A stretch of DNA of 44,989 nucleotides from Lachnospiraceae bacterium (GTDB lineage: Bacteria > Bacillota > Clostridia > Lachnospirales > Lachnospiraceae): assembly GCA_017520155.1 (NCBI GenBank), contig JAFXGR010000080.1, positions 1 to 44,989 of the forward strand, written 5' to 3'. Position 1 is the first letter of the stretch, and each line of letters begins with the position of its first letter. The position numbers and the translations under genes were made by a program. This document shows positions 9,407 through 34,246 of the stretch, piece after piece. The notes below the pieces were generated by a model. It searched no databases. It saw nothing but the letters and a program-made list of their open reading frames with translations, and had not been told where the DNA came from.

Positions 9407-9550
9407 GTAACCATTCAGAGCCATACTAGAGAATCCTTAGGATTTTCTCATTTTGGTTTCTCGTCAAATGAATTTATCAGAAAAACTGTTCTCAAATGCA
9501 AGTATTCATCACAGTTTTTCTGATATATTCGCTTGGCTCTGAATAGTTAC
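9407..9550. repeat. Inverted-repeat element, copy A (three-hairpin, 144 bp)
   Basis: The ends are GTAACCATTCAGAGCCA (9407-9423) and TGGCTCTGAATAGTTAC (9534-9550), complementary over 17 bp with one mismatch. Inside are a short hairpin (GAGAATCC with GGATTTTCTC, 9429-9450) and a perfect 15-bp stem TATCAGAAAAACTGT / ACAGTTTTTCTGATA (9475-9489 and 9511-9525). No reading frame is present. Two related copies lie at 19855 and 34105. It fits a MITE or other small structured intergenic repeat; function is unknown. Confidence 0.8.
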
Positions 9551-9572
9551 AAAAATAATAGAATTGGTAAAA

Positions 9573-9604
9573 TTAAGGAGCAGATCTTTTGATTTGCTCC
9601 TTAA
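9573..9604. other. Hairpin downstream of repeat copy A
   Basis: TTAAGGAGCA (9573-9582) pairs perfectly with TGCTCCTTAA (9595-9604) around a 12-base loop, followed by AAATTTT. It may act as the terminator for the sugar operon, but the T run is weak and it lies 214 bases after the last gene. The rest of 9359-9895, apart from the listed repeat, promoter and leader, shows nothing that I recognise. Confidence 0.5.
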
Positions 9605-9695
9605 AAATTTTGGGGGAAGCTTCTTAAAAATAAGTAAAATAATAAGGGGAAATAAAATAAATAGTAGAAAAAATATAAAAAAATAAAACAATTAT

Positions 9696-9724
9696 TTGAC
9701 TACTCCACTGTGAAGTCATATAAT
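9696..9724 (+). promoter_or_regulatory. Consensus sigma-A promoter of the chemoreceptor gene
   Basis: TTGACT (9696-9701), a 17-base spacer and TATAAT (9719-9724) match the vegetative consensus in 11 of 12 positions. The start of transcription would be near 9731, leaving a leader of about 165 bases before the GTG at 9896. There is no sigma-D type motif here, although chemoreceptor genes are often read by that factor. Confidence 0.85.
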
Positions 9725-9762
9725 ATAAATTGTAAAAGCAAATGGGATGTGAGATAAATCTG

Positions 9763-9827
9763 ATTATACGAACCAAAATGTGGTTCGTATAATACAGTTT
9801 TATGAAAAGTGATGAAAATGACTTTTC
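9763..9827 (+). promoter_or_regulatory. Structured 5' leader of the chemoreceptor mRNA
   Basis: Two consecutive hairpins lie between the promoter and the start. ATTATACGAACCA (9763-9775) pairs perfectly with TGGTTCGTATAAT (9781-9793), and GAAAAGT (9804-9810) pairs with ACTTTTC (9821-9827). The first stem is followed by ACAGTTTT, a weak T run. I do not recognise a known riboswitch; the conserved core of the GEMM cyclic-di-GMP class is not visible. Confidence 0.55.
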
Positions 9828-9895
9828 GTAACTAGGCACATATGCATTTGTAAAGGAAGCAGGGGGAGCACAAGAGAGAAACGGAGGGCGATAAA

Positions 9896-11593
9896 GTGGG
9901 AAAGGAAAATAGGAAGGAACATCATGTAAAAAGTCAGGCAGAGGAGCTGAAATTAATTACCAAAACCACATATTCTATTGTGATTGTTGCAGTAATTGTT
10001 TTAGCAATATTTGTATTTTTAACAATTTTTAGTCAGAGGAAAAGCCAAATTCAGCTGGAAAATACCATGTATTTAACACAGTTTTGTACCGGTTCTGAGA
10101 ATTTAACCAGTGCGGTACAGGCTTTTGCGGTTACTGCAGACGAAAAATACTACCAGGAATATATGGATGAGCTGGAAGTAGTAAAGAATCGTGATATTGC
10201 GTTAGAAGGTCTTAAAAAAAATGGATTAAAAGACAGTGAATGGGATATGATTAACAATATCTCTAATTTGTCTAATGAACTTGTGCCATTGGAAACATCT
10301 GCCATGGACAGTGCCAGAGCGGGAGATACCAAGACTGCCATGGATTATGTTTTTGGAGATGAATATGAAGATACGGTACATATTATTAACAATGATACAG
10401 ACGTGTTAATTAATACCGTACAGGAAAGAATGGCAAAAGAACAAAAAACAGTTAATTTTATTATGTACACCTGTGAAGTAATCTTTATTATTATCTGTGT
10501 GGTCATGGTTCGCATGATTATTAAAACCATTCATTTTTCCAAGAGAGAGCTGCTGGATTCTATTGTTGGAGTATCCTCAGCATTGGGAGAGTTGTCTCAG
10601 GGTCATTTAGATGCAGATCTTACCAGAATGCATGTGGATGAAAGTGAAGTAGGACGAATGGTAGGAGCCCTGCAGTATATGGAAAATAATTTTAATGAGA
10701 TGATTTCTGAAATTTCTAATGTACTGGAATCTATGGCTCACGGAAACTATCGTGTAGATGTGAATAAGGAATACGTAGGGGATTTCTTTAAGATTAAAGA
10801 ATCCTTATTGGATATTGTGGATGAAACAAAGAAGGTATTAGCTACCATTCAGATTACCGCACAGGAAATTGATAGTGGATCTGAGCAGATGGCAAAGGCA
10901 GCTATGGATTTGGCTGAGGGAAGTACAGTTCAATCTCAGATGGTTCAGGAAGTTGCGGAAATGGTAAATAAGATGGCAGTTTCCCTGGAGAATAAGGCAA
11001 AAGAAGCAGAAGAAACCGTGAAAATGGCAGAAGGTGCTGCAGCAGTAATGATGGATGGAAATGCCAAGATGCAGGAATTAAAAGAAGCTATTGGTGAGAT
11101 TGAAAAATGCTCCAATGAGATTCATAATATTATCGGAACCATTGAAGATATTGCAAATCAAACTAATCTCTTATCCTTAAATGCATCTATTGAAGCAGCC
11201 AGAGCAGGAGATGCGGGAAGAGGCTTTGCAGTAGTTGCAGAACAGGTAAAAAATCTTGCGGAGGAATCTGCAAATGCAGCAGGAGAAACAAAGAAATTAA
11301 TTGAGACTACAGTAGCTGCGGTACGAAAGGGAATCAGCTTTGCAGATGTTACGGCAGAAAGTATGAACAGTGTTATTTCCAAAGCTCAGGAATCTATCGG
11401 AATGATGAATAAGATATCCATAGAACTAAGAGAAGAAGTTACCAATATGTATCAAATTGATTCCGATGTGGCAAGAGTAGCGGAAATTGTAGATAACAAC
11501 TCTGCAACCAGTGAAGAAACTGCAGCAGTCAGCCAGCAGCAGACAGCCCAGGTAGCAACCATGGTACAGATGCTTGAACAGTTTAAGATTTAA
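9896..11593 (+). CDS. Methyl-accepting chemotaxis protein
   Basis: A 565-residue membrane chemoreceptor. Segments at about 26-47 and 185-208 bracket an extracytoplasmic helical sensor region of about 137 residues (four-helix-bundle type). A HAMP domain and the cytoplasmic signalling coiled coil follow, with the conserved hairpin tip [19 protein letters not shown] at about 421-439 that contacts CheA and CheW. It ends without a CheR-binding pentapeptide. The start is GTG, chosen because GGAGGG lies 7 bases upstream and no ATG fits. It stands alone between non-coding stretches, with its own consensus promoter, a structured leader and a terminator. Its ligand cannot be predicted. It agrees with the flagellar genes at the far end of the window. 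Confidence 0.95.
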
Positions 11594-11611
11594 AAACACA
11601 CAGAAAATGAG

Positions 11612-11640
11612 GACCGGATTTGAAATCCGGTCTTTCTTTG
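11612..11640 (+). terminator. Terminator after the chemoreceptor gene
   Basis: GACCGGATT (11612-11620) and AATCCGGTC (11624-11632) form a perfect 9-bp stem with a three-base loop, followed by TTTCTTTG. It is 18 bases after the stop. Confidence 0.85.
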
Positions 11641-11734
11641 TTCGGTTTTACTCTTACTTTTTCTTGCAGGAAATATATCACGATGTTACAATATCAATAC
11701 ATTAGTTATATACATTTACAATGGAGAGAAGATT

Positions 11735-12541
11735 ATGCCTACTACATATGCTCATTATAAGTTAGGCCTTGAAGTACGAAAGAAAGCGACACCTCAGGTT
11801 GCTGATATTATAGAAGAATATCCGCAGCTGTTTCAGATTGGACTTCATGGTCCTGATTTATTATTTTATTATAAAGCTTTAAGTAAAAATAAAGTAAATA
11901 AGATTGGATATCATTTACATGAGTTGCCGGGAAGAGTTTATTTTGAGCAGGCAGCCAAGGTAATAAAGAAAAAAGATTATCATAAAGCGTATCTTGCTTA
12001 TACCCTAGGTTTTTTATGTCACTATATTTTGGATGTTACCTGTCATGGATGGGTAAATGAAAATGTGAAGAAGCAGGTTGCTGACCATTTGGAAATTGAA
12101 GCAGAGTTGGATAGAGAGCTTTTGCTTCGGGAGGGAAAGGATCCCCAAAAGGCCATACTTACGGGACATTTACAGCCGGGAAGAAAAAATGCAGAGGTAA
12201 TTTGTGACTTTTTTCCTGAATTAACAGTGGAAGAAATAGAAAAATCTATAGAAGATATGATTTTTTATCTTAATTTGATTGTGGCTAAGAATCCCTTAAA
12301 ACGATGGATTTTAACCACTGCCTTAAAATTAGCAGGAAAATATGAGGCTTTTCATGGATTAATTATTAATAAGCATAAGAATGAAAACTGCAGTGACTGT
12401 ACCAATCGCTTGCTGGAGCTTTTTGAAGAGGGAAAGGAAAAAGCTCTTCGCCTCACAGATGAATATGTGGATTACGTATATGGAATCAAGGAATTGGATC
12501 CCCTTTATCATTACAATTTTGATTCCCTTTTGGTGCCGTAG
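11735..12541 (+). CDS. Zinc-dependent phospholipase C domain protein
   Basis: A 268-residue protein opening with PTTYAHYKLGLEV, the usual start of small clostridial proteins with the zinc-dependent phospholipase C fold (PF00882 type). Potential metal ligands are spread as in that fold: His7, the HGPD motif near residue 35, the histidine of YHLHELPGR, the HYILDVTCHGWVN segment and Asp/Glu residues further on. There is no signal peptide, so unlike secreted alpha-toxin it should be cytoplasmic, and lipase activity is not established for this subgroup. It appears to be a single gene with an ATGGAGAGAAG-type ribosome site. The physiological substrate is unknown. Confidence 0.85.
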   Translation: MPTTYAHYKLGLEVRKKATPQVADIIEEYPQLFQIGLHGPDLLFYYKALSKNKVNKIGYHLHELPGRVYFEQAAKVIKKKDYHKAYLAYTLGFLCHYILDVTCHGWVNENVKKQVADHLEIEAELDRELLLREGKDPQKAILTGHLQPGRKNAEVICDFFPELTVEEIEKSIEDMIFYLNLIVAKNPLKRWILTTALKLAGKYEAFHGLIINKHKNENCSDCTNRLLELFEEGKEKALRLTDEYVDYVYGIKELDPLYHYNFDSLLVP

Positions 12542-12574
12542 TACAGAAAAATTGTCAGCCATTTAAGAAGCCAT

Positions 12575-12610
12575 AAGACTGAATTGTTAAAGTTTAGGGA
12601 TAGCTATACC
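12575..12610. repeat. Possible relic of the 14137 fold-back element end
   Basis: Two blocks are identical to the left end region of the fold-back element: AAGACTGAATTGTTA (12575-12589; also 14116-14130) and ATAGCTATACC (12600-12610; also 14156-14166). They are 10 bases apart here and 25 apart there. The stretch lies in the gap before the MFS gene. It could be the decayed or excised end of a second copy. Confidence 0.5.
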
Positions 12611-12653
12611 GATGAAGAATGAAAAACACAGGAAGGAAAGAAAGGACAAAAAT

Positions 12654-13892
12654 ATGAAATTTTCCAAGGAAGAAAAAAGCTGGATTCTGTATGATGTGGG
12701 GAATTCTGCCTTCACCTTATTGATGGCAACTATTATGCCCATTTATTTTAATTATCTGGCAGAAAGCGGAGGACTTACGGAGGTAGAGTATTTGGCCTAC
12801 TGGGGGTATGCAGCCTCCATTACCACGTTGATTGTGGCTTTGCTGGGGCCTGTTTGCGGTTCTATTGCAGATACCAAAGGATTAAAAAAGCCTATATTTC
12901 TTGCCGCGTTGTTCATAGGAGTTGTAGGTTGCATTTCCTTGGGATTAGCTAAACAATGGCTGATTTTTCTTATTATATTTGTTATTGCTAAGGTGGGATA
13001 TTCCAGCAGCCTTATTTTTTATGATGCTATGTTGACAGACGTAACCACAGAAGAGAAAATGGATCAGGTATCTTCCTTAGGATATGCTTTGGGCTATATT
13101 GGAAGCTGTATTCCCTTCTTCCTTTGTCTTGTACTGGTACTTGGAGGAAGTGGCTTTGGTCTTTCTATGGAAGTGGCTATGATGTTCTCCTTTATTATTA
13201 CTGCAGCCTGGTGGGTAATCATGACCCTTCCTTTATTAAAGAATTATAAGCAGATTTACTATGTGGAAAGAAAGCCCCATGTAGTGGCAGAAGGCTTTAA
13301 ACGCTTGGGAAGAACCTTTAAAAATGTAAAAAAGGAAAAAAAGATTTTTATTTTCCTACTGGCCTTTTTCTTCTATATTGATGGTGTATATACCATTATT
13401 GATATGGCAACAGCCTACGGCTCTGCTTTAGGACTGGATACCACCGGACTTTTGATTGCTCTTTTGGTAACCCAGATTGTGGCTTTTCCCTTTGCCATTT
13501 TATTTGGAAGACTTGCAAAAAAATATAGTGCAGAATCTTTAATTACGGTATGTATTACCGCTTATTTTGGTATTGCGGTATATGCTTACTTTTTACAAAA
13601 TCAGGTACAGTTTTTCACCTTGGCAGTTTGGGTGGGAATGTTTCAGGGAGGAATTCAAGCCTTATCCCGTTCTTATTTTACCAAGATTATTCCTGCTGAA
13701 AGAGCGGGAGAATATTTTGGTTTAATGGACATTTGCGGAAAAGGAGCAGCCTTTATCGGTACTGCTGTAGTCAGTGGAGTATCCCAGCTTACGGGAGATA
13801 TTAACAAAGGAGTAGGTGCCATTGCTGTCTTTTTTGTTATCGGTATGATTCTATTTCGGATGTCAGTAAAGGCGGAAAACGAAGGAGTATAG
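12654..13892 (+). CDS. MFS transporter, UMF1/Atg22-like family
   Basis: A 412-residue membrane protein with about twelve hydrophobic segments. The start MKFSKEEKSWILYDVGNSAFTLL is diagnostic of the Atg22-like UMF1 family, where the W-x-L-Y-D-x-x-N-S-A-F phrase precedes the first helix. Other family features are GPVCGSIADTKGLKKP (the loop 2-3 motif) and QGGIQALSRSYFTKIIP. The family exports or takes up small solutes, and bacterial substrates are mostly undefined. ATG 12654 is preferred over in-frame ATG 12612 because AAAGGA precedes it by 8 bases and the extra 14 residues are highly charged. It ends in a strong terminator, and the flanking gaps carry repeat-like sequence on both sides. Confidence 0.9.
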   Translation: MKFSKEEKSWILYDVGNSAFTLLMATIMPIYFNYLAESGGLTEVEYLAYWGYAASITTLIVALLGPVCGSIADTKGLKKPIFLAALFIGVVGCISLGLAKQWLIFLIIFVIAKVGYSSSLIFYDAMLTDVTTEEKMDQVSSLGYALGYIGSCIPFFLCLVLVLGGSGFGLSMEVAMMFSFIITAAWWVIMTLPLLKNYKQIYYVERKPHVVAEGFKRLGRTFKNVKKEKKIFIFLLAFFFYIDGVYTIIDMATAYGSALGLDTTGLLIALLVTQIVAFPFAILFGRLAKKYSAESLITVCITAYFGIAVYAYFLQNQVQFFTLAVWVGMFQGGIQALSRSYFTKIIPAERAGEYFGLMDICGKGAAFIGTAVVSGVSQLTGDINKGVGAIAVFFVIGMILFRMSVKAENEGV

Positions 13893-13902
13893 AGAAAAAA
13901 TG

Positions 13903-13946
13903 AAAACGAGAGATATCTAAAGAGCATCAGAGTCTCTCGTTTTTTA
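13903..13946 (+). terminator. Terminator after the MFS transporter
   Basis: AAAACGAGAGA (13903-13913) pairs with TCTCTCGTTTT (13933-13943) and the right arm continues into a T run. It starts 10 bases after the stop codon. Confidence 0.85.
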
Positions 13947-14136
13947 TGTATGCTTTTGGCAGCTTCCGGTTATTTGAAAATTTTCTTCTGTGACAGACAG
14001 AAAAAATCACAGTTTTAAAAGAACTTATATATGAGCTTACCTTGATAAAGGAAGAGATGATCATATTACCATGGAGCAAAAGAAAGAAGAGAGCTGTGTC
14101 TGCAGCTGGAAGTCAAAGACTGAATTGTTATAAAGT

Positions 14137-14302
14137 CTAGTGTAACGTTTTCTAAATAGCTATACCATTCACATAGTATATTTTTCTGAGAGTGAAGTTC
14201 AAAAAACGTAGGCGTAGCGGGCTACGCTGAGGATTTTTGAATCTTTGCTATCAGGAAAATAGGCATGTGATATGGTATAGTTAATTTAAAAACGTTGCAC
14301 TA
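14137..14302. repeat. 166-bp fold-back (long-palindrome) element
   Basis: The stretch is an imperfect palindrome about a centre at 14219/14220 (CGTAGC GG GCTACG). The outer ends are CTAGTGTAACGTTTT on the left and, read from the other strand, CTAGTGCAACGTTTTT on the right. Further in, CTATACCATTCACAT on the left faces CTATACCATATCACAT on the right. The two ends are each 82.5 bases from the centre. No coding frame is evident. This is the organisation of a fold-back MITE. It occupies the 13893-14386 gap; between the MFS terminator and the element I see no other feature beyond a 15-base repeat block at 14116-14130. Confidence 0.85.
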
Positions 14303-14324
14303 GTTTTACAAACGATTTCTTAGG

Positions 14325-14353
14325 TCGACGAAAATTCCCTTCTATGTTATACT
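14325..14353 (+). promoter_or_regulatory. Promoter of the Tet(M)-like GTPase gene
   Basis: TCGACG (14325-14330), a 17-base spacer and TATACT (14348-14353) give 4/6 and 5/6 matches to the sigma-A hexamers. Transcription would start near 14360, only about 27 bases before the ATG. Confidence 0.6.
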
Positions 14354-14375
14354 ATCTGCATAATACATAGAAGGG
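14337..14375. promoter_or_regulatory. Palindrome spanning the -10 region and ribosome binding site
   Basis: CCCTTCTATGT (14337-14347) and ACATAGAAGGG (14365-14375) are perfect 11-bp inverted repeats separated by 17 bases. The right arm contains the AGAAGGGAG ribosome binding site of the GTPase gene and the left arm runs up to the -10 box. It could be a repressor operator at the transcription start. If transcription begins further upstream, the same arms would form an RNA hairpin that hides the ribosome binding site. Confidence 0.6.
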
Positions 14376-14386
14376 AGTCATTTTTC

Positions 14387-17020
14387 ATGGAAAAGCAAAA
14401 AAGAAAAAAGAATATCTGTATTGGTCTGCTGGCCCATGTGGATGCGGGAAAAACTACCCTTTCAGAACAGCTTTTATTTAAAACAGGAGCCATTAAAAAG
14501 GCAGGACGAGTTGACCATAAGGATACTTTTTTAGATACCCATAGCCTGGAAAGAGAAAGAGGAATTACCATCTTTTCCAAACAGGCTATTTTTTCTGTGG
14601 AAAACTTTAAGGTTACCTTACTGGACACTCCGGGTCATGTAGACTTTTCAGGGGAGGCAGAACGTACTCTTCAAGTCCTGGATTACGGAATTTTAATTAT
14701 TAACGGAACTGACGGTGTTCAAAGTCATACAAGAACCTTATGGAGATTATTAAAAAAATATCAGATTCCTGTGTTCCTTTTTATCAACAAGATGGATCAG
14801 ACAGAAAAGGAAAAGGAAGAACTTTTAAGGGAAATAAAAGAAAAACTTAGTGACGATTGTGCTGATTTTACTTTAGAGGATGATTCCTTTTACGAAGAAA
14901 TTTCCCTGAGAGAGGAACATCTGTTAGAGGAATTTTTAGAGGGAACTTATGCTACTACAGACCAGATTGCAGACTTAATTAAGGAAAGAAAAGTATTTCC
15001 CTGCTATTTTGGTTCAGCCCTTAAGGATCAGGGAATTGACCTGTTGCTGAAGGGAATCAATGGTTTTATGAAAGAGGCTGAGTATAAAGAAGACTTTGCT
15101 GCCAGAGTATATAAGATTGGAAGAGATCCTCAGGGACAGAGACTGACTTATCTTAAGGTGACGGGAGGAAGTCTTAAGGTGAAGCAGATCATAAGACAGG
15201 CAGGAAGGAAAGAAGGAGAAGAGGTACAAGAGAAGGTAAATCAGCTTCGGTTCTACAATGGAATAAGCTATGAAACAAGAGAAGAGGCCTATCCCGGAGA
15301 AATTGTAGCAGTGACGGGGGTGGAGAATACCTATCCGGGACAGGGGCTGGGATCTGAGGAAAAAAGCAGGGAAACCTTATTGGAGCCGGTGTTAACCTAT
15401 TCCATTTTACTTCCGGAGGGGGTAAATGTATTTCAGGCCTTTGAAAAACTGAAACTGCTGGAGGAAGAGGAGCCTAATTTACAGATTACCGGAAAGGAAG
15501 ACGGAACCCATATCCAATGTAAGGTGATGGGAGAAATTCAGCTTCAGGTAATCAAAGAATTGGCAAAGCAACGTCTGGGACTGGAAATCAGCTTTGGATC
15601 AGGGCAGATTGTCTATAAAGAAACCATAGAAGAAATGGTAGAGGGAGTGGGACATTTTGAACCTCTTCGCCATTATGCCGAGGTTCATCTTCTGTTAAAA
15701 CCTCTTCCCAGAGGAAGAGGAATTGAGATCAGCAGACAGTGTAGTGAGGACTTGTTAGATCGAAACTGGCAAAGACTGATTTTAACCCATATGGCAGAGA
15801 GAGAACATCGTGGTGTGTTAACCGGTTCTTCCATCACGGATATGGAACTGGTATTGGTATCTGGAAAAGCACATAAGAAACATACTGAAGGAGGAGATTT
15901 CAGACAGGCTACTTACCGGGCCATTCGTCAGGGCCTTTGTAAGGCAAAAAGCCGCCTTTTAGAGCCTGTTTATGATTTTGTTTTGGAAGTTCCCACGGCA
16001 ACTCTGGGACGGGCAATGTCTGACTTACAGCGTATGTCTGCAGATTTTCAACTGGAAGGGCAGGAAGTACGTCAGGGGGAAGAGTGTTCCCTGATAAAGG
16101 GACGATGTCCTGTAGTCACCATGCAGGAATATCAAAAGGAAGTATTGTCTTATACCAAAGGAAAAGGTCGCCTGGAGTGCTTTATGGCAGGCTATGATTT
16201 TTGTCATAATGAGGAAGAAATCATAGAAACAGTGGGATACAATCCGGAAGCTGATTTGAAGAATCCTTGCGGCAGTATTTTTTGCAGTCACGGCGCCGGT
16301 GTTTATGTGGAATGGAATAAAGTGGAGGAGGAGATGCATCTTCCCTTATATCAGGAAGAAAAAACTATAGAACAAGTGACCTTTACCCAGCGAAAAAGGG
16401 AAAAAAAGGAAGAATTTGTGGGAACAGAGGAAATTGATGCCATTTTAGAAAAAACCTTTTATTCCAACCGTAAAAAAGCGGGAAATTATGGAAAGCCCGG
16501 ATGGAAGGAAAGAGCAAAAAGTACAGGAATCAGTGCCCGGGAATATCAATACAAGGGAGAAGCCAAAAAGGAAGAATACCTTTTGGTAGACGGCTATAAT
16601 ATTATTTTTGCCTGGCAGGAGCTAAAGGAGCTGGCAGCAGTAAATCTGGATGGTGCCAGAGGAAGGTTACAGGATATTTTATCTGATTATGCGGGGATGA
16701 GAGGCATCCGTCTGATGGTGGTATTTGATGCCTATCGTCTTCAGGGACATCCTGTAGAAGTACTGGATTACCATAATATTAAGGTGGTATTTACGAAAGA
16801 AGCAGAGACGGCAGACCAATTTATCGAAAAGTTTACGGCAAAACACGCCAAGGAGTTTCGGATTACTGTTGCAACTTCTGATGGACTGGAGCAGATTATT
16901 ATTCGGGACAGGGCTGTCACCTGCTATCAGCCAGAGAATTGGGAGAAGAAATTAAGAGGAAAAAAGCTGAATTTACTGCTTATTATGAAGAAAAATCAGG
17001 AAATAAAAAGGTGTATTTAA
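14387..17020 (+). CDS. Tet(M)-like ribosomal GTPase fused to a YacP/NYN domain (3' frameshifted)
   Basis: An 877-residue product as read. The N-terminal part is an EF-G/Tet(M)-type GTPase: P-loop AHVDAGKTT (about 16-24), ERERGIT switch I, DTPGHVDF, and NKMD. Domains II to V follow, with the LVSGKAHKKHTEGGDFRQAT segment of domain IV. A cysteine-containing linker leads to a YacP/NYN RNase-like domain from about 731 (YLLVDGYN with Asp735, VVFDAYR, TADQFIEK, VATSDG). This fused protein is a general clostridial family, and tetracycline protection should not be assumed from the name. The last 30 or so residues are out of phase with the family: a shift of reading frame near 16919-16930 restores SARELGEEIKR, a typical YacP ending (see the next entry). 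Confidence 0.9.
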   Translation: MEKQKRKKNICIGLLAHVDAGKTTLSEQLLFKTGAIKKAGRVDHKDTFLDTHSLERERGITIFSKQAIFSVENFKVTLLDTPGHVDFSGEAERTLQVLDYGILIINGTDGVQSHTRTLWRLLKKYQIPVFLFINKMDQTEKEKEELLREIKEKLSDDCADFTLEDDSFYEEISLREEHLLEEFLEGTYATTDQIADLIKERKVFPCYFGSALKDQGIDLLLKGINGFMKEAEYKEDFAARVYKIGRDPQGQRLTYLKVTGGSLKVKQIIRQAGRKEGEEVQEKVNQLRFYNGISYETREEAYPGEIVAVTGVENTYPGQGLGSEEKSRETLLEPVLTYSILLPEGVNVFQAFEKLKLLEEEEPNLQITGKEDGTHIQCKVMGEIQLQVIKELAKQRLGLEISFGSGQIVYKETIEEMVEGVGHFEPLRHYAEVHLLLKPLPRGRGIEISRQCSEDLLDRNWQRLILTHMAEREHRGVLTGSSITDMELVLVSGKAHKKHTEGGDFRQATYRAIRQGLCKAKSRLLEPVYDFVLEVPTATLGRAMSDLQRMSADFQLEGQEVRQGEECSLIKGRCPVVTMQEYQKEVLSYTKGKGRLECFMAGYDFCHNEEEIIETVGYNPEADLKNPCGSIFCSHGAGVYVEWNKVEEEMHLPLYQEEKTIEQVTFTQRKREKKEEFVGTEEIDAILEKTFYSNRKKAGNYGKPGWKERAKSTGISAREYQYKGEAKKEEYLLVDGYNIIFAWQELKELAAVNLDGARGRLQDILSDYAGMRGIRLMVVFDAYRLQGHPVEVLDYHNIKVVFTKEAETADQFIEKFTAKHAKEFRITVATSDGLEQIIIRDRAVTCYQPENWEKKLRGKKLNLLLIMKKNQEIKRCI

Positions 17021-19854: not shown

Positions 19855-19928
19855 GTAACTGTTCAAAGTCAAAGTAAAAAATCTCATGAATTTACCTATT
19901 TTAAGTTTCCTTGTCTATGAATAGTTAC
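19855..19928. repeat. Inverted-repeat element, copy B (short, 74 bp)
   Basis: The left end GTAACTGTTCAAAGTCAAAG (19855 onwards) matches the complement of the right end, GTAACTATTCATAGACAAGG, at 16 of 20 positions. The right end TGAATAGTTAC (19918-19928) is identical to that of copy A at 9540-9550. The interior is shorter than in copies A and C and lacks their strong internal hairpins, so it may be a deletion derivative. It lies between two divergent genes. Confidence 0.65.
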
Positions 19929-26380: not shown

Positions 26381-26413
26381 AGAAGGATTTGGGTTTGTTA
26401 GAGATAGAGTAAG

Positions 26414-27208: not shown

Positions 27209-27277
27209 GATAAACATCTCCTTTATTTTCTGTGTTAAATATTAGTGTTTTCTTGTTGATAGACTGATCATAAGTCA

Positions 27278-27299
27278 GAAAGATTAAAGAAAGATTAAA
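27278..27299. promoter_or_regulatory. Tandem 11-bp direct repeat upstream of the PepSY gene
   Basis: GAAAGATTAAA occurs twice head-to-tail with no gap (27278-27288 and 27289-27299), 70 to 91 bases before the PepSY start. Direct repeats with an 11-base period are the usual binding pattern of OmpR/PhoB-type regulators, and one is encoded at 28663-29334. Nearby, GACT and AGTC arms (27262-27276) form a short inverted repeat. Binding is inferred. Confidence 0.5.
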
Positions 27300-27301
27300 A
27301 A

Positions 27302-28660
27302 TTAATTTTTTTTCGGAAGAGTTATTTTAAACTGGCTTCCTTCATGAAGTATGCTTTTTACCTCTATGGTTCCACCATGCAGCTGTACAATTTGTTTACA
27401 AAAAGAAAGCCCCAGACCGCTTCCACCGTGGTGGGATTTGTTACGGGAAGAATCTGCCTGATAAAAACGATCCCATATTCGGGGTAAATCTTCCTGAGAA
27501 ATTCCCCTACCATCATCCTTTATTATTACCTCCAGATAATCCTTATATGAAAAAAGAGAAATCCAGATATTTCCATTCTCCTTTCCGTAGGTAATCGCAT
27601 TTTGGATTAGGTTGGTAAATAGACGTATCAGCATATGTTCATCTCCGGAATAGGAAGAAGAGGAAGGTAATTCTTTATGAATCACAATCTTTTTTTCCAA
27701 GGAAGTCTGCTCTAATGAATCTGCAACAAAAGAAAGAAGCTGTGAGAGACAAAGAGTCTGTGGATGGAGAGTTTCCTGTCCTTGTTCCATACGGGAAAGA
27801 GATAATAACTGAGAAGTAAGAGAGGACATAATAGAGGCTTGGCGTAAAATAACCTCTAGGGAATCTGTTTTTTCTAAAGAGCTTGTGTCTTCTCTTAGTC
27901 CATATTCACATTCTGCCCGTATTACACTGATAGGAGTACGCAGCTCATGGGAAACATCGGAGGTAAAGGCTTTTTCTCGCTGAAAGGACTGCTCAAGCCG
28001 TTCCATCATGTGATCGAAGGTTTGGGCCAATTGGTGTACCTCATCCTTTTTGGAAGGAAGATTAATTCGTTTGGAAAGATCATTTCCACAGCTGATTTGA
28101 GAAGAAAGTCTATTCAAATGTTCCAAAGGAAGCAAATTTCTTTTTATGATATGATACCCGCTGAGAGAAACTACAAGAACAAAAAAGGGGAGAAAAATAA
28201 CACAGGCCTTAAGAATAGTCACCATCCATCCCTCTTTTCCGGTTTGTGAGGTAATACCCCGAATCCAGATAGGACCGTAACCGTTTAAAACAAACTGATT
28301 ATCATAAATTTTCCAGTTAGTATAAAAGTCATATTCCTCCTGAAGATAATCCATGGCCAGATAGGCGGAGCCATTGTAATAGGAAGGAAGATCTCCATAG
28401 AGGAAATTTCCCTTTTCATCATAAACTGATAAATATACACCCTTTTCTAGTCCCAAAAGATGAAAATCAGGATCAAAGGTAAGTTCTCCGGAAACAAGAG
28501 AAACTTCTTTAAAGCTTCGATTAACGGTATTCTTCAACTGTTGGTCAACACCGGAGAAAATTTTTGAAGCAGAAAAATATAATAGTAAGCTAAAGGATAT
28601 CCCTACCAGTAAAACCATAAAAAGAGAATACCACAGAGTAATTTTTAATTTAACAGACAT
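27302..28660 (-). CDS. Sensor histidine kinase (OmpR-partner type)
   Basis: A 452-residue membrane kinase. Membrane segments at about 9-29 and 150-172 enclose an extracytoplasmic region, followed by a HAMP linker, the dimerisation domain with FTSDVSHELRTPISVIRAE (phosphoacceptor His238), and an ATPase domain with NLIQNAITYG, DDGRGIS, RFYQADSSRN and GGSGLGLSFCKQIV. It is the classical HisKA type and differs from the YesM-type kinase at the window start. The start lies 2 bases after the stop of the response regulator, so the two are translated together. The signal is unknown; the PepSY lipoprotein downstream may take part in sensing at the membrane. Confidence 0.95.
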   Translation of the reverse strand: MSVKLKITLWYSLFMVLLVGISFSLLLYFSASKIFSGVDQQLKNTVNRSFKEVSLVSGELTFDPDFHLLGLEKGVYLSVYDEKGNFLYGDLPSYYNGSAYLAMDYLQEEYDFYTNWKIYDNQFVLNGYGPIWIRGITSQTGKEGWMVTILKACVIFLPFFVLVVSLSGYHIIKRNLLPLEHLNRLSSQISCGNDLSKRINLPSKKDEVHQLAQTFDHMMERLEQSFQREKAFTSDVSHELRTPISVIRAECEYGLREDTSSLEKTDSLEVILRQASIMSSLTSQLLSLSRMEQGQETLHPQTLCLSQLLSFVADSLEQTSLEKKIVIHKELPSSSSYSGDEHMLIRLFTNLIQNAITYGKENGNIWISLFSYKDYLEVIIKDDGRGISQEDLPRIWDRFYQADSSRNKSHHGGSGLGLSFCKQIVQLHGGTIEVKSILHEGSQFKITLPKKN

Positions 28661-28662
28661 AC

Positions 28663-29334
28663 TTACTCCTCCTTTAAGACATAGCCCACACCCCGGACAG
28701 TATGAATCAGTTTGGGAGTAAAGGTATCATCAATCTTTTTTCGTAAATAACGAATATACACATCAATAACATTGGAACCCCCTTCATAATCGTAATTCCA
28801 AATATGCTGCTCTATTTTATCACGACTTAACACAATTCCGGGATTTCGGATCATATATTCCAAAATAGAAAACTCTTTGGAAGAGAGTATAATTTCAACA
28901 TCATTGCGAAAAACCCGATGGGCACCAATATCTACCTTTAAGTTGGATAAGGTAAAACAGGTATCTGTATTTTGTGCGGGAGTTCGAAGTAAAACCCGGA
29001 GACGGGCAAGTAATTCTTTAAAAGCAAAGGGTTTTACCAGATAATCATTGGCACCGCTGTCAAGTCCCATAACCCGATCATCTACAGAATCTCTGGCAGT
29101 GAGAAATAAAACAGGTACCGTTAATCCTTTTTTTCTTATCCGGGAAAGTACCTCCAGGCCGGATAGACCGGGCATCATAATATCCAGTATGGCAGCATCA
29201 TACTCTGTACTGGTTAAAAAATATAAAGCATCGTCACCGCAAAAGCAGGAGTCAACACTGTATCCTTCCTTCTTCAAGGTTTTGGTAAGAATGGAATTTA
29301 AATCTTTTTCATCTTCCGCAATAAGAATTCGCAT
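28663..29334 (-). CDS. OmpR/PhoB family response regulator
   Basis: A 223-residue two-domain regulator. The receiver domain has acidic residues at 7-8, the phosphorylation site Asp51 in AILDIMMPG, and Lys in LVKPFAFKELLARL. The C-terminal winged helix has SSKEFSILEYMIRNPGIVLSRDKI and the ending VIDVYIRYLRKKI with the TVRGVGYVL wing. It is first gene of a three-gene minus-strand group (regulator, kinase, PepSY lipoprotein). A GGAGG box precedes the ATG, and an extended -10 promoter lies about 50 bases upstream. The tandem 11-bp repeats before the PepSY gene are a candidate target. Confidence 0.95.
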   Translation of the reverse strand: MRILIAEDEKDLNSILTKTLKKEGYSVDSCFCGDDALYFLTSTEYDAAILDIMMPGLSGLEVLSRIRKKGLTVPVLFLTARDSVDDRVMGLDSGANDYLVKPFAFKELLARLRVLLRTPAQNTDTCFTLSNLKVDIGAHRVFRNDVEIILSSKEFSILEYMIRNPGIVLSRDKIEQHIWNYDYEGGSNVIDVYIRYLRKKIDDTFTPKLIHTVRGVGYVLKEE

Positions 29335-29383
29335 AAGAGCAGCACCTCCTATTATTGTTCTATAGAGAAATTCTGTTTACCCT

Positions 29384-29392
29384 ATTGTACCA
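29384..29392 (-). promoter_or_regulatory. Extended -10 promoter of the two-component operon
   Basis: On the minus strand TGGTACAAT (TGn plus TACAAT) lies about 50 bases before the response regulator start. No convincing -35 box is present at 17 bases, consistent with an extended -10 or activated promoter. Confidence 0.45.
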
Positions 29393-29591
29393 CTGTGTAA
29401 ATAAATAAGATACCGTAAAGTAAAAGATGTAGAAATGTGCCATAAGTATAAATCGCTCCTGTACACACTGTTCAAATTTCATGATAGACTGTTTCTCTTG
29501 TCTTATCATTTACCGGTCAAAAAAGAAGGGCATACACATTTTGAGAAAGCAGGCGTATTATATAGCATCAGATTTTTTAGGAGGATATACA

Positions 29592-30572
29592 ATGAAGAAA
29601 AAGTGGATAGGATTTTTGTGTGTTTTTTCTGCACTGCTGATGCTTAGTGGCTGTAAGGAGACAAAAACAGCAACAGAAAAAATTGTGTTAAATGAAGTGG
29701 CTCATTCTGTTTTTTATGCTCCTTTATACACAGCGATAGAGCAGGGGTATTTTAAAGAACAGGGGTTGGAGATTACGTTAGTTACGGGATTTGGAGCGGA
29801 TAAAACTATGACTGCCCTGTTGTCGGATGAAGCAGATATTGGCTTTATGGGGCCGGAATCTACTATATACACCTATCAGGGAGGAATGGAAGATTACGCA
29901 GTTAATTTTGCACAGTTAACCCAAAGAGCCGGAAATTTTGTGGTAGGAAGACAAAAGGAGGATAGTTTTTCCTTTAAAAATCTTAAAGGAAAGACTGTGC
30001 TGGCAGGAAGAGCAGGGGGAATGCCTCAGATGATTTTTGAATATGTATTAAAGAAGCATGGTCTAAATCCTAAAACAGATTTAATTATGGATCAGAGTAT
30101 TGATTTTGGTTCTACGGCAGCAGCATTTTCGGGGGGACAGGGAGAATATACTATAGAGTTTGAACCCCATGCCACGGCCTTGGAAGAAAAAGGAGACGGT
30201 TATGTTCTGGCTTCTTTGGGAGAAGAGTCAGGGTATGTTCCCTACACCGCATTTTGTGCAAAAAAAAGCTATTTGGAGGAAAATCCTGAAAAGATAGAAA
30301 AATTTGTTGCAGGATTAAAAAAAGGGGTAGACTATGTAGTAAATCATACAGCGAAAGAAGTAGCGGAGGTGATAAAACCTCAGTTTGAAGAAATGGAAGA
30401 AATAGCTTTGGAAAAAATAATTGAACGCTATCAAGGTCAGGATACCTGGAAAGAGGATTTAATCTTTTCGGAAGAAGGATTTGATTTATTGCAGGCTATT
30501 TTAATGGATGCGGGAGTTGTGGAAGAGAAAGCTTCTTATGAGGATTTAGTAAACACAGCCTTTACTCCTTAG
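29592..30572 (+). CDS. NMT1/SsuA-type ABC substrate-binding lipoprotein
   Basis: A 326-residue solute-binding lipoprotein with lipobox LSGC (Cys21). The mature part begins with IVLNEVAHSVFYAPLYTAIEQGYFKEQGLEITL, the pattern of the SsuA/TauA/ThiY group that binds sulfonates, nitrate or thiamine precursors, followed by GADKTMTALLSDEADIGFMGPESTIYTYQ. The start at 29592 is used because TAGGAGG lies just before it and the signal peptide begins there; upstream in-frame codons to 29481 have no ribosome site. Its permease and ATPase are not in the window: the next gene encodes an SPFH protein with its own promoter. The ligand cannot be inferred with confidence. Confidence 0.9.
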   Translation: MKKKWIGFLCVFSALLMLSGCKETKTATEKIVLNEVAHSVFYAPLYTAIEQGYFKEQGLEITLVTGFGADKTMTALLSDEADIGFMGPESTIYTYQGGMEDYAVNFAQLTQRAGNFVVGRQKEDSFSFKNLKGKTVLAGRAGGMPQMIFEYVLKKHGLNPKTDLIMDQSIDFGSTAAAFSGGQGEYTIEFEPHATALEEKGDGYVLASLGEESGYVPYTAFCAKKSYLEENPEKIEKFVAGLKKGVDYVVNHTAKEVAEVIKPQFEEMEEIALEKIIERYQGQDTWKEDLIFSEEGFDLLQAILMDAGVVEEKASYEDLVNTAFTP

Positions 30573-30600
30573 AAAAGAAAAAGAAAAATAAGAAGAAGCC

Positions 30601-30629
30601 TTTTTTCTTAAAATAATTCATGTTATAAT
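30601..30629 (+). promoter_or_regulatory. Extended -10 promoter of the SPFH gene
   Basis: TGTTATAAT (TGn plus a perfect TATAAT at 30624-30629) with a T-rich stretch at the -35 position (30601-30606) lies about 75 bases before the SPFH start. A second TATAAT at 30657-30662 lacks a -35 box. Confidence 0.55.
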
Positions 30630-30702
30630 AAACCAAATCTCTTATTTTAGGTACAGTATAATAAGAAAGTGAAAAAATAGGATAAAATACAGGAGGATAG
30701 TT

Positions 30703-31686
30703 ATGGGATTTTTTTCAAAACAATTTGCCAGTGTAATTGAATGGAATGAAAATAACGAGAAAATGTTATTTTGGAAATTCCAAAGTGATGAAATTAAAAA
30801 GGATTCAAGATTAATTGTTCGCCCCGGGCAGGATGCAATTTTCCTGTATAACGGAGCGGTAGAAGGGATTTTTGAAAAAGAAGGTAATTACGAAATTGAA
30901 TCCCAGATTATTCCTTTTTTAACTACTTTAAAGAGCTTTAAATTTGGATTCAGCACACCCTTAAGAGCAGAGGTATTATTTGTTAATACTAAGGAGGTAC
31001 TGGTAAAGTGGGGAACCAAAAATGCCATTAATCTTCAGGCGCCGGGACTTCCCGGAGGAATGCCCATTCGTGCCTTTGGAACCTTTAGCTGTAAAGTGGG
31101 AGATTATAACGTATTAATTGAAAAATTGGCGGGAATCAAGCAAAGCTACAGTGTAGATGATGTAAAAGAGCGTATTGTTACGGATGTAAACCCTTTGCTG
31201 ATGCGCTGGATTGGCAAAGCAGGAAGAGATATGTTTAATCTGCAGATGGATGCTGCAGACATAGGAGATGGGATTTGTAAAGAACTTAATGAAGAGCTTA
31301 ATGGACTGGGAATTAAAATCACCAATTTTACCATTGAAAGCTTCTCCTATCCGGAAGAAATTAAGAAGATTCAGGAAAAAGCAGCAGCCCAGGCTATGGT
31401 GGGAGATGTGAACAAATACCAGCAGCTGGCAATGGCAGATGCCTTAGGAAAAGGCGGAAGCGGCGGAGGAATGGCTGCAGATATGGTGGGACTTCAGATG
31501 GGAATGGCCATGGGACAGCAGATGGTAAATCAGATGCAGATGGGAGCAAATTCCATGAATATACAGCAGTCTGTACCTATGGGACAATCAGCAGGAAACG
31601 GTGCTGCTCCTAAGTTTTGTCCTAACTGCGGAACACCAACTAATGGTGCTAATTTCTGCTCTAACTGCGGAAATAAATTAGTGTAA
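30703..31686 (+). CDS. SPFH-domain protein with C-terminal zinc ribbon (YdjI-like)
   Basis: A 327-residue protein of the COG4260/YdjI type, sometimes labelled virion core protein. The SPFH (band 7) core spans about 20-230 with LIVRPGQDAIFLYNGAVEG, FGFSTPLRAEVLFVNTKEV and the helical ITNFTIESFSYPEEIKKIQEKAAAQ broken by a hinge. A Gly/Met-rich linker leads to a zinc ribbon CPNCG...CSNCG at the end. It lacks a membrane segment, so it is probably a peripheral scaffold. Relatives often accompany membrane-stress or phage-shock-like genes, but none is adjacent here. An AGGAGG box precedes the ATG, and a perfect 12-bp hairpin terminator follows. Confidence 0.88.
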   Translation: MGFFSKQFASVIEWNENNEKMLFWKFQSDEIKKDSRLIVRPGQDAIFLYNGAVEGIFEKEGNYEIESQIIPFLTTLKSFKFGFSTPLRAEVLFVNTKEVLVKWGTKNAINLQAPGLPGGMPIRAFGTFSCKVGDYNVLIEKLAGIKQSYSVDDVKERIVTDVNPLLMRWIGKAGRDMFNLQMDAADIGDGICKELNEELNGLGIKITNFTIESFSYPEEIKKIQEKAAAQAMVGDVNKYQQLAMADALGKGGSGGGMAADMVGLQMGMAMGQQMVNQMQMGANSMNIQQSVPMGQSAGNGAAPKFCPNCGTPTNGANFCSNCGNKLV

Positions 31687-31707
31687 TAATTAAAGGTAAC
31701 AGATAAC

Positions 31708-31741
31708 AGGATGCTGCAGCAGTCTGCAGCATCCTCTTTTT
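31708..31741 (+). terminator. Terminator after the SPFH gene
   Basis: AGGATGCTGCAG (31708-31719) and CTGCAGCATCCT (31724-31735) form a perfect 12-bp stem with a 4-base loop, followed by CTTTTT. The end of the T run touches the GGGAG ribosome site of pcrA. Confidence 0.9.
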
Positions 31742-31751
31742 GGGAGAAGAA

Positions 31752-34109
31752 ATGAGTAGATATGATACATTGAATAAAGAACAAAAAGAGGCTGTTCTCC
31801 ACACAGAAGGTCCTCTTTTGATTCTGGCAGGGGCAGGATCAGGTAAGACCAGGGTGATTACTCATAGGATTGCTTATTTAATAGAAGAAATGGGAGTAAA
31901 ACCTTGGAATATATTAGCCATTACCTTTACCAATAAGGCAGCAGGAGAGATGAAGGAAAGAGTAAGGGATATTGTGGGCTTTGGTTCTGACCAGATTTGG
32001 GTTTCCACCTTTCATTCCACCTGTGTAAGAATTCTCAGAAGGCATATTGATCTTTTGGGATATAATACTAACTTTACCATTTATGATTCGGATGATCAGA
32101 AAACGGTAATGAAAGAGGTGTTAAAGAGACTGGAGATTGATCCTAAACAGGTTAAGGAAAGAACGGTCCTTGGGATGATATCCAAGGCAAAGGATTCTTT
32201 AGTCAGCCCCCGGGAATTTCGCTTAAATGCTATGGGAACTTTTGGGATGGAGAGAATTGCCAATGCCTATGAGGAATATCAAAATACCCTGAAAAAAAGC
32301 AATGCACTGGATTTTGATGATTTGATTTGTCTTACGGTGGAACTGTTTAAAAACTGTCCTCAGGTTTTGGAGCAATATCAGGAACGTTTTCGCTATATCT
32401 GCGTAGATGAGTATCAGGATACCAATACGGCTCAGTTTGAACTAATCAGATTGTTATCTTCCAAGTACAGAAATCTTTGTGTAGTAGGTGATGATGACCA
32501 GTCTATTTATAAGTTCAGAGGAGCTAACATTAATAATATTTTAGATTTTGAACAATATTTTTCAGATGCAAAAGTAATTAAGCTGGAACAAAATTACCGT
32601 TCCACTAAATATATTTTAGATGCGGCAAATGAAGTAATCCGAAATAATGTAGAGCGAAAGGAAAAATCCCTTTGGACAGGAATGGAAGAAGGAAAAAGAC
32701 TGCATTTTCGCCACTTTGATACTGCCTATGAAGAAGCAGAATACATTGCCTTTGATATACTGCAAAAACAAAGAAAACAGGAGGCTGATTATGGTCAGTG
32801 TGCAGTATTATACAGAACAAATGCTCAGTCCCGTATTTTGGAGGAGCGTTTTGTACGTGAAGGAATTCCTTATGATTTAGTGGGAGGAACAAACTTTTAT
32901 TCCAGAAAAGAGATTAAGGATATGCTGGCCTATTTAAAGACTATTGATAATGGTAAGGATGATTTGGCGATAAAGCGTATTATTAATGTTCCCAAACGAG
33001 GAATTGGTGCAGCTACGTTACAGAAGGTGCAAAATTATGCCTTAGAAGAAAATATCAGCTTTTTCGAAGCCTTAGCCAAAGCAGACCAAATTCCCGGTCT
33101 GGGGAAAAGCAGCAGCAAGCTATTGGCCTTTGTTAATATGATTTATGTTTTTCGGAGTAAAGCAAAAATTGGCGGACTGAAACATCTTCTGGAAGAAATT
33201 ATCTCAGTAACAGAGTATCAGGATTATTTGCAGGAGTATGAAGAAGAGGATGCAGAGGATCGTATGGAAAATGTAAACGAGTTAATTACAAAAATTACCG
33301 TTTATGAAAATGACCATGAAGAACCCTCCTTAAGTGAATTTTTAGAAGAAGTTGCTTTGGTGGCAGAGATAGATTCTCTGGATGAGGACAGTAATCGTGT
33401 GTTGCTGATGACTCTGCACAGTGCAAAAGGTCTGGAATTTCCGGTGGTTTATCTGGCAGGAATGGAAGACGGGATTTTTCCCAGCTATATGACCATTATG
33501 GATGAAGATCCCACAGCCATAGAAGAGGAAAGACGTTTGGCTTATGTGGGAATTACCAGAGCCATGACAGACTTAACCTTAACTGCAGCAAAATCCAGAA
33601 TGCTTAGAGGAGAAACACAGTATAATCCGGTTAGTCGTTTTCTCAGAGAGATTCCCCATCATTTGATGGATAATCATCCTCCTGCAGGACGAAAAAAAGA
33701 AGTTACCTATGAAGCTGACTCCCGAGAGGCAGAAGTATTTAAGAGTAAACCCTTTGGAATGGCAAATAAAACATCAGAGGCCTCTTTTTTAGTGAAGGGA
33801 ATGGGAGATACAGGAAAAAGTGCACGGGTAGATCTTAGACCTAAGGCACAGCTGAAACCTAAAGTAACTGCCCTGGAAAATAAGCCCTTTATTGCCAAGG
33901 GACAAACGTTGAGCGGATTAGCAAAAGGAGCTCCCTCCTTAGGGAAATTAGAGTATGGAGTAGGAGACAGAGTAAAACATATTAAATTTGGAGAAGGGCT
34001 GGTAAAAGATATAGTTCCGGGACCAAGAGATTATCAGGTAACCATTGAATTTGATCTTGTGGGGCAAAAAATTATGTATGCCGCCTTTGCAAAGTTAAAA
34101 AAAATATAA
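31752..34109 (+). CDS. pcrA: ATP-dependent DNA helicase PcrA (UvrD family)
   Basis: A 785-residue superfamily 1A 3'-5' helicase for DNA repair and rolling-circle replication. Motif I is LILAGAGSGKTRVI (Lys32), Ia is ITFTNKAAGEMKERV, II is CVDEYQDTN, III is VVGDDDQSIYKFRGA, IV is LEQNYRS, V is LMTLHSAKGLEFPVVYLAGMEDGIFPS and VI is EERRLAYVGITRA. The poorly conserved C-terminal tail ends in a Tudor-like segment (VGDRVKHIKFGEGLVKDI) that contacts RNA polymerase in homologues. The start ATG 31752 follows GGGAG by 5 bases; TTG at 31740 is in frame but overlaps the preceding terminator. Repeat copy C begins in the last codons of this gene. Confidence 0.96.
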   Translation: MSRYDTLNKEQKEAVLHTEGPLLILAGAGSGKTRVITHRIAYLIEEMGVKPWNILAITFTNKAAGEMKERVRDIVGFGSDQIWVSTFHSTCVRILRRHIDLLGYNTNFTIYDSDDQKTVMKEVLKRLEIDPKQVKERTVLGMISKAKDSLVSPREFRLNAMGTFGMERIANAYEEYQNTLKKSNALDFDDLICLTVELFKNCPQVLEQYQERFRYICVDEYQDTNTAQFELIRLLSSKYRNLCVVGDDDQSIYKFRGANINNILDFEQYFSDAKVIKLEQNYRSTKYILDAANEVIRNNVERKEKSLWTGMEEGKRLHFRHFDTAYEEAEYIAFDILQKQRKQEADYGQCAVLYRTNAQSRILEERFVREGIPYDLVGGTNFYSRKEIKDMLAYLKTIDNGKDDLAIKRIINVPKRGIGAATLQKVQNYALEENISFFEALAKADQIPGLGKSSSKLLAFVNMIYVFRSKAKIGGLKHLLEEIISVTEYQDYLQEYEEEDAEDRMENVNELITKITVYENDHEEPSLSEFLEEVALVAEIDSLDEDSNRVLLMTLHSAKGLEFPVVYLAGMEDGIFPSYMTIMDEDPTAIEEERRLAYVGITRAMTDLTLTAAKSRMLRGETQYNPVSRFLREIPHHLMDNHPPAGRKKEVTYEADSREAEVFKSKPFGMANKTSEASFLVKGMGDTGKSARVDLRPKAQLKPKVTALENKPFIAKGQTLSGLAKGAPSLGKLEYGVGDRVKHIKFGEGLVKDIVPGPRDYQVTIEFDLVGQKIMYAAFAKLKKI

Positions 34110-34246
34110 CAATTCAGGCACACTCCAAAATACTTCGTATTTTCTTGCTTTGGACATTAGTCCAATAGAAATAGACAATAACAGTCTTTTGAAAACCTAC
34201 TTTCAATTGCCTGTTTTTTCTATTTCTGCTGTCCTGAATAGTTATA
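34105..34246. repeat. Inverted-repeat element, copy C (142 bp) overlapping the pcrA stop
   Basis: The ends are TATAACAATTCAGG (34105-34118) and CCTGAATAGTTATA (34233-34246), complementary at 13 of 14 positions. The interior contains several hairpins: AAAATAC/GTATTTT with a TTC loop, TTGGAC/GTCCAA, and AGAAATAG/CTATTTCT enclosing TTGAAA/TTTCAA. Length and end sequence match copy A. The left end contains the pcrA TAA stop. Confidence 0.75.

What the first reader, a model, noticed from the sequence alone, without database searches (positions are those of the whole stretch)
9407..34246. Three dispersed copies of a structured element with GTAACTATTCAG-type ends
Copies at 9407-9550, 19855-19928 and 34105-34246 share outward ends TGAATAGTTAC / GTAACNATTCA (TGAATAGTTATA in copy C). 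All are intergenic. A and C are nearly the same length (144 and 142 bp) but their interiors differ, keeping internal hairpins in place of sequence identity. That suggests that structure is conserved, as in a small mobile element folded as single-stranded DNA, or in a structured RNA family. Three copies in 45 kb imply many in the genome.
Basis: partly seen in the sequence, partly recalled or inferred. Interest (0 to 1): 0.75.

Follow-up and report, generated by a model that had tools for sequence, protein, structure and literature searches.

The report
Jumping DNA with an RNA-like fold
The three repeats are copies of a small jumping DNA element found in many gut bacteria of one family; it carries no genes, but one of its strands keeps an RNA-like clover-leaf fold related to an orphan RNA family that itself turns out to sit in a jumping element.

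Summary
Copies A (144 bp) and C (140 bp) have perfect 8-bp target-site duplications (TSDs); B (74 bp) is a decayed internal-deletion form. The host genome, from the Lachnospiraceae, holds at least 32 places. Of 397 genomes of the family, 65 match the two-ended pattern, up to 70 copies each; outside the family it is at background (2 of 375). Of 104 distinct elements, 49 have exact 8-bp TSDs (shuffled 0.7). Copy C is missing from five sister species. No gene-bearing copy was found, so these are MITEs moved in trans. Ends in GTAA plus an 8-bp TSD resemble local IS66 elements; the partner is unidentified.

The interior is a clover-leaf with strong covariation and a strand preference: G.T mismatches exceed A.C, one strand folds better, and a G(CUUG)C loop recurs on it; the terminal repeats show no such bias. 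On that strand 4 of 18 elements tested (not the window's) match Rfam RF01699 (Clostridiales-1 RNA) below threshold, and the reverse search agrees. RF01699 copies also have inverted ends and 7- or 8-bp TSDs, so that orphan 'sRNA' is itself MITE interior. My searches found no paper saying so. Transcription and function are untested.

The parts
9407..9550 (-). Copy A, full-length class-I element; the strand whose fold is kept (O1) is minus
   Evidence: R1 match 135.2 bits, E=8e-29, full length on minus (A is one of the 17 sequences R1 was built from); exact 8-bp TSD
9399..9406 (.). Left target-site duplication of copy A, AAAAATAA
   Evidence: identical to 9551-9558
9551..9558 (.). Right target-site duplication of copy A, AAAAATAA
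19855..19928 (.). Copy B, internally deleted and decayed element with both ends
   Evidence: both ends match the 11-mer with at most 1 mismatch; R1 26.5 bits, E=4e-4 on minus and 25.7 bits on plus; no TSD
34106..34245 (-). Copy C, full-length element of a diverged subfamily; O1 strand is minus; supplies the TAA stop of the helicase ORF 31740-34109
   Evidence: R1 93.8 bits, E=2e-19 on minus (C is in the R1 training set); exact 8-bp TSD; absent from five sister species
34098..34105 (.). Left target-site duplication of copy C, AAAAAAAT
   Evidence: identical to 34246-34253
34246..34253 (.). Right target-site duplication of copy C, AAAAAAAT

Best explanation
The copies are non-autonomous DNA transposons (MITEs) of one family spread through the Lachnospiraceae. 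A DDE-type transposase supplied in trans, probably IS66-like, recognises the terminal repeats GTAACNRTTCAG/CTGAAYNGTTAC, cuts A+T-rich target DNA with an 8-bp stagger and inserts the element, leaving an 8-bp duplication. The terminal repeats are the transposase sites. The interior (roughly 110 nt) is a separate cargo: on one strand (O1) it folds into a three-armed clover-leaf (a long arm tipped by G(CUUG)C, a short arm, a third arm with a tandem G.A internal loop). That fold is kept by compensatory change and is a distant relative of Clostridiales-1 RNA (RF01699), which here proves to be the interior of a second MITE family with other ends. Shown: ends, TSD, copy number, absence of copy C from sister species, covariation, strand preference, two-way model matches to RF01699. 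Inferred: the IS66-like partner; that the kept strand works as an RNA; that the RNA helps the element persist (by stabilising or insulating transcripts it lands in, or by a role in mobilisation).
For: TSD: 49 of 104 distinct elements exact at 8 bp, shuffled mean 0.7, other lengths 0-2. Copies: 32 vs 1 control in the own genome, 65 of 397 family genomes with 1 control genome. Sister species G001-G005 lack copy C. No gene-bearing form: 92 end pairs with TSD of at least 7/8, none above 303 bp. Covariation: 33 of 56 pairs changed on both sides, shuffled 18.6, 0 of 500. Strand: interior G.T 32 vs A.C 6 (23 vs 6 distinct contexts, p=0.002), terminal repeats 1 vs 4; more stable on O1 in 59 of 61 with RNA and 56 of 61 with DNA energies. 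RF01699: L085 44.1 bits E=1e-6, L041, L045, L108; reverse R1 matches in 13 of 30 RF01699 loci, best E=8e-7. RF01699 TSDs: 7 bp in 8 of 22, 8 bp in 3 of 22. IS66 style: IS66 of G132, delimited by three copies, begins GTAAACG with an 8-bp TSD.
Against: RF01699 matches are below its 48-bit threshold and occur in 4 of 18 class-I elements tested, not in the window copies; in the two reverse alignments shown, the similarity is secure in the long arm only. O1 shows no preference for co-transcription with neighbours (15 antisense to both, 9 sense to both, 13 mixed, 5 one-sided), and promoter-like sites near A and C are no more than in shuffles. IS66 (PF03050) is absent from 7 of 16 high-copy genomes and no IS66 with these ends was seen. 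Compensatory change in hairpins can also arise by template switching.
Confidence: 0.6

Rival explanations
1. Plain DNA MITE. The interior hairpins matter only as DNA (palindromes, cruciforms); the compensatory changes come from template switching in hairpins, not from selection on an RNA.
For: Ends and TSD need no RNA; no co-transcription bias; a G+C-rich class with the same ends has other hairpins; short 40-50 bp forms also have TSDs.
Against: Mismatch bias and stability favour one strand, conserved CUUG and GNA loops and the G.A internal loop lie on that strand, and RF01699 copies show the same bias (22 vs 3). Strand-blind DNA processes predict symmetry.
Confidence: 0.25
2. The kept strand works as single-stranded DNA (for example during replication or transfer), not as RNA, inside a MITE.
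For: DNA energies also favour O1 (56 of 61); GNA triloops and tandem G.A are stable in DNA too (recalled); no promoter signal.
Against: Inverted ends with 8-bp TSD give no role for a single strand in insertion; relatedness to a family classed as RNA, though that classing is itself predicted.
Confidence: 0.12
3. The mobilising enzyme is not IS66-like but another, unseen transposase with an 8-bp stagger.
For: PF03050 absent from 7 of 16 high-copy genomes; IS66 ends seen differ after GTAA; weak co-occurrence (33 of 65 element-positive vs 104 of 332 negative genomes, p=0.004, my tally, tested).
Against: GTAA start with 8-bp TSD fits the IS66 elements of the same family; one (G174) begins GTAACCGTCA. 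The scans only looked for ends that begin GTA, so this fit is partly imposed; G132 was delimited independently by comparing copies.
Confidence: 0.45
4. An immobile structured RNA gene family, or an IS200/IS605- or REP-type palindrome moved as single-stranded DNA.
For: Strong fold and covariation; short hairpin forms exist.
Against: Exact 8-bp TSDs, inverted ends, insertion into other copies and absence from sister loci.
Confidence: 0.02

Closest known systems
Clostridiales-1 RNA (Rfam RF01699; Weinberg et al. 2010, PMC2864571, passages seen)
   Same: Long arm with G(CUUG)C tip, short arm, third arm, dispersed in the same bacterial family; full-length model matches on the same strand; both sit in elements with inverted ends and TSDs.
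   Different: Scores below the gathering threshold; other ends (GATRCCAGGGTC...GACCCCAACATC) and TSDs of 7 or 8 bp; about 192-204 bp long when delimited.
IS66 family insertion sequences
   Same: Ends begin GTAA and make 8-bp TSDs in the same genomes.
   Different: The sequence after GTAA differs; no transposase gene inside our elements; partner not found.
Bacterial MITEs with internal structure (Correia/NEMIS, RUP, bcr1; recalled)
   Same: Short, non-autonomous, inverted ends, intergenic, many copies, folded.
   Different: Other ends and TSDs (recalled); here the fold is strand-specific and shared with an Rfam RNA family.
REP/REPIN and IS200/IS605-derived palindromic elements (recalled)
   Same: Dispersed palindromes, short hairpin forms.
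   Different: Those make no target duplications (recalled); ours makes exact 8-bp ones.

Membership tests
MITE (non-autonomous DNA transposon) | Terminal inverted repeats | tested here: met
   GTAACNRTTCAG / CTGAAYNGTTAC
MITE (non-autonomous DNA transposon) | Target-site duplication of fixed length | tested here: met
   49 of 104 exact at 8 bp, shuffled 0.7
MITE (non-autonomous DNA transposon) | Short, no coding capacity, many copies | tested here: met
   end pairs with TSD are 30-303 bp; 65 of 397 genomes, up to 70 copies
MITE (non-autonomous DNA transposon) | Autonomous partner with the same ends | tested here: not met
   none in the loci held nor in the listed ends of G132 (100 of 120), G140 (100 of 235) and G031 (50 of 77); the search is not exhaustive, and lack of a partner is not disqualifying for a MITE
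IS66-derived MITE | Ends begin GTAA and TSD is 8 bp | tested here: met
   IS66 comparison
IS66-derived MITE | Terminal sequence shared with an IS66 element | tested here: not met
   5 IS66 elements delimited (2 of 12 regions, 3 of 29 loci); none has GTAACNRTTCAG
Clostridiales-1 RNA (RF01699) | Score at or above the gathering threshold of 48 bits | tested here: not met
   best 44.1 bits; none in the window
Clostridiales-1 RNA (RF01699) | Same arm layout and long-arm G(CUUG)C motif on the same strand | tested here: met
   secure for the long arm, less so for the other arms
IS200/IS605-type or REP-type element | No target-site duplication | tested here: not met
   exact 8-bp TSD
Expressed structured RNA | Covariation and strand-specific fold | tested here: met
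Expressed structured RNA | Transcript detected | not testable with these tools
   no expression data held

The most novel reading that the evidence does not exclude
A functional structured RNA domain travels as cargo of bacterial miniature transposons: one clover-leaf RNA core has been adopted by at least two MITE families with unrelated ends, and an orphan Rfam family (Clostridiales-1) is in truth a transposon-borne RNA whose job is to help its carrier persist or move.
Probability: 0.4. Interest if true: 0.85.

Novelty: new variant of a known kind. Interest (0 to 1): 0.65.

Why it matters
It explains an orphan structured-RNA family as transposon interior and makes it directly testable whether bacterial MITEs carry functional RNAs. 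RF01699 alone is in 215 of 397 genomes of a major gut family, so the result bears on annotation, on mRNA ends and on genome plasticity of human and ruminant gut bacteria.

Tried and rejected
IS66 elements were examined as the source of the ends; their terminal sequences differ. Candidate long composites in G140 and G031 had no TSD and look like separate copies. A transposase gene recurring next to copies was sought by clustering flanking ORFs; of the ten recurrent families I scanned, nine matched Pfam families of other kinds and one matched none. UNCG tetraloops in the G+C-rich class were suspected and not found. Plasmid records held no match to copy A; phage records held 2 matches to the related element L110. 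Literature: the end sequence occurs in one paper, on silkworm genome editing (listing only); MITE with Lachnospiraceae, IS66 or cloverleaf, and structured non-autonomous elements, and Clostridiales-1/RF01699 gave nothing in the listings that links them. Of PMC2864571 I saw passages of the main text, not its additional files, which may say more. ISfinder is not held.

Rows left out: alignment A1 uses 17 of the 52 elements (window copies A and C among them); the G+C-rich class, the most divergent class-I members and several further own-genome copies were left out. The strand test uses 61 of 104 elements (those with a CUUG loop on one strand only). An earlier strand test on 42 elements, the best matches, gave interior 21 vs 4 and terminal repeats 7 vs 6, and 13 vs 4 by distinct context, p=0.049. 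RF01699 duplications were scored in 22 of 30 copies; 8 had no recognised right end, and the boundary taken for L276 is doubtful. The counts 33 of 65 and 104 of 332 were tallied by hand. One search scored 150 of 1563 first-look candidates, so 32 places is a lower bound.

Full report
Observation. The three copies exist as described. Copy A is 9407-9550, copy C proper is 34106-34245, copy B is 19855-19928. A and C are flanked by perfect 8-bp duplications, AAAAATAA and AAAAAAAT; B is not. The covariance model R1, built later from 17 elements including A and C, finds A (E=8e-29) and C (2e-19), and B weakly (4e-4), as an internally deleted form.

Copy number and range. In the own genome (2.57 Mb, 189 contigs, 81% complete) the end CTGAATAGTTA occurs 32 times against 1 for the reversed control. 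R1 gives 40 matches at 32 distinct places once opposite-strand repeats are merged, a lower bound because 150 of 1563 candidates were scored. A two-ended pattern hits 65 of 397 genomes of the same family (60 of 334 genera), up to 70 copies per genome, with 1 control genome. In a class-wide draw of 391 genomes 4 match: the own genome, G033 of the same family, and one place each in 2 of the 375 genomes outside the family, where 2 genomes also have control hits. Equal contig lengths suggest that sister genomes G001, G004 and G005 are Lachnospiraceae MAGs from goat, sheep and water buffalo hindgut (inference).

It is a transposable element. Among 104 distinct elements of 100-160 bp with exact end cores, 49 have identical 8-bp flanks (shuffled mean 0.7) and 62 match in at least 7 of 8; lengths 5, 6, 7, 9, 10 and 11 give 2, 1, 1, 1, 0 and 0. 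The duplicated target is A+T-rich. One copy has its duplication inside what looks like the end of another copy (L005), and a 303-bp element in the own genome with its own duplication contains two R1 matches. The 3' end of the helicase gene in sister species G001-G005 lacks copy C; the sixth, G006, was uninformative. So in this genome the insertion supplies the stop codon. Divergence prevents a base-exact empty site. Size variants of about 41-51, 142 and 233 bp occur together in G132.

No autonomous copy seen. In all 401 loci then held, 92 pairs of ends with flanks matching in at least 7 of 8 span at most 303 bp, although pairs up to 7.5 kb were looked for; many loci are only about 3 kb long, which limits this. 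The listed ends of G132 (100 of 120), G140 (100 of 235) and G031 (50 of 77) gave no gene-bearing element. IS66 elements delimited here begin GTAAACGTCAAAC (G132), GTAAACGCAAAAT (G321), GTAACCGTCAAAT (G174), GTAAGCGTCAAAT (G021) and GTAAGTAGGAAAT (G292), with 8-bp duplications. These scans required ends beginning GTA, so the likeness is partly imposed; G132 was delimited independently from three copies. The MITE end GTAACNRTTCAG is of that style but not the same. PF03050 occurs in 137 of 397 genomes: 33 of 65 element-positive and 104 of 332 negative ones (p=0.004). It is absent from 7 of 16 high-copy genomes. I hold IS66-type mobilisation as likely, not shown.

Fold. The interior of class-I elements is a clover-leaf: terminal-repeat stem, long arm, short arm, third arm. 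On 17 sequences from 11 genera, 56 pairs give 91.4% paired cells and 33 pairs with changes on both sides against 18.6 in shuffles; none of 500 shuffles reached any of the five measures, and sliding the partners destroys it. A G+C-rich class with the same ends has other hairpins and was not tested for covariation. Template switching in hairpins could by itself yield some compensatory change.

Strand. I oriented elements solely by a CUUG tetraloop (61 of 104). On that strand (O1), with G-T pairing forbidden during folding, interior 1x1 mismatches are 32 G.T and 6 A.C (23 and 6 distinct contexts, p=0.002), while terminal-repeat mismatches are 1 and 4. The fold is more stable on O1 in 59 of 61 with RNA and 56 of 61 with DNA energies. 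RF01699 copies show the same (22 vs 3; 30 of 30 more stable), though they were chosen by an RNA model. In the window O1 is the minus strand for A and C. Over 42 elements O1 is antisense to both neighbours in 15, sense to both in 9, mixed in 13, and has one neighbour only in 5: no preference for co-transcription. Promoter-like sites near A and C do not clearly exceed shuffles. So the fold of one strand appears to be under selection; RNA is the likelier carrier, single-strand DNA is not excluded.

Link to a known RNA. At gathering thresholds Rfam finds nothing in the window. In E-value mode full-length RF01699 (Clostridiales-1 RNA) matches 4 of 18 distinct class-I elements, L085 (44.1 bits, E=1e-6), L041, L045 and L108 (37.9, 35.9, 33.6 bits), each on O1 and below the 48-bit threshold; the window copies gave none. 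In reverse, R1 gives matches up to E=0.1 in 13 of 30 RF01699 loci, best 8e-7; several cover only the long arm, and in the two alignments shown the other arms fit poorly. Its copies have ends GATRCCAGGGTC...GACCCCAACATC, with exact 7-bp duplications in 8 of 22 and 8-bp in 3 of 22 delimited copies (shuffled 0.6 and 0.1). So this orphan family is the interior of another MITE. Weinberg et al. 2010 list it as probably an RNA and probably not cis-regulatory, taxa 'Clostridiales, human gut'; the passages I saw do not mention mobility.

Judgement. MITE status is close to certain. The strand-specific fold is probable. The kinship with RF01699 is probable for the long arm and possible for the whole. RNA function and the IS66 partner are open; the proposed functions (transcript stabilisation, insulation, or a role in mobilisation) are inference only.

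Noticed in passing
L257-L286 (RF01699 copies in other genomes of the family): Clostridiales-1 RNA copies lie in elements with inverted ends GATRCCAGGGTC...GACCCCAACATC and 7- or 8-bp target duplications (8 and 3 of 22 delimited).
   Followed up: partly
L096, L102, L103, L105, L137 (examples): A G+C-rich class shares the GTAACNRTTCAG ends but has other hairpins, often with an inner complement of the left end (such as CAGTTACG) about 20-30 bp in, so that the left end could pair with it instead of with the right end.
   Followed up: no
L005:1280-1422 and L004:1210-1512 (own genome): One copy is duplicated within CTGAACTG, the end of what looks like another copy; a 303-bp element with its own TSD holds two model matches, so copies insert into copies.
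   Followed up: partly
L247, about 2465-2515 (G001, downstream of the helicase gene): The sister species lacks copy C but has a different short (about 45 bp) hairpin form with the same kind of ends in the same intergenic stretch.
   Followed up: no
L084:1407-1809 (minus): A sub-threshold T-box leader match (55.3 bits, threshold 93) spans the place where an element (1500-1641) sits, as if it had inserted into the leader.
   Followed up: no
phage record MT837934.1:3285-3429: A full-length relative (78.6% identity to the L110 element) lies in an unannotated faecal phage record.
   Followed up: no
L031, L032 (G000:C187) and L033 (G000:C50): The own genome has only broken or partial IS66 transposase genes.
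   Followed up: no
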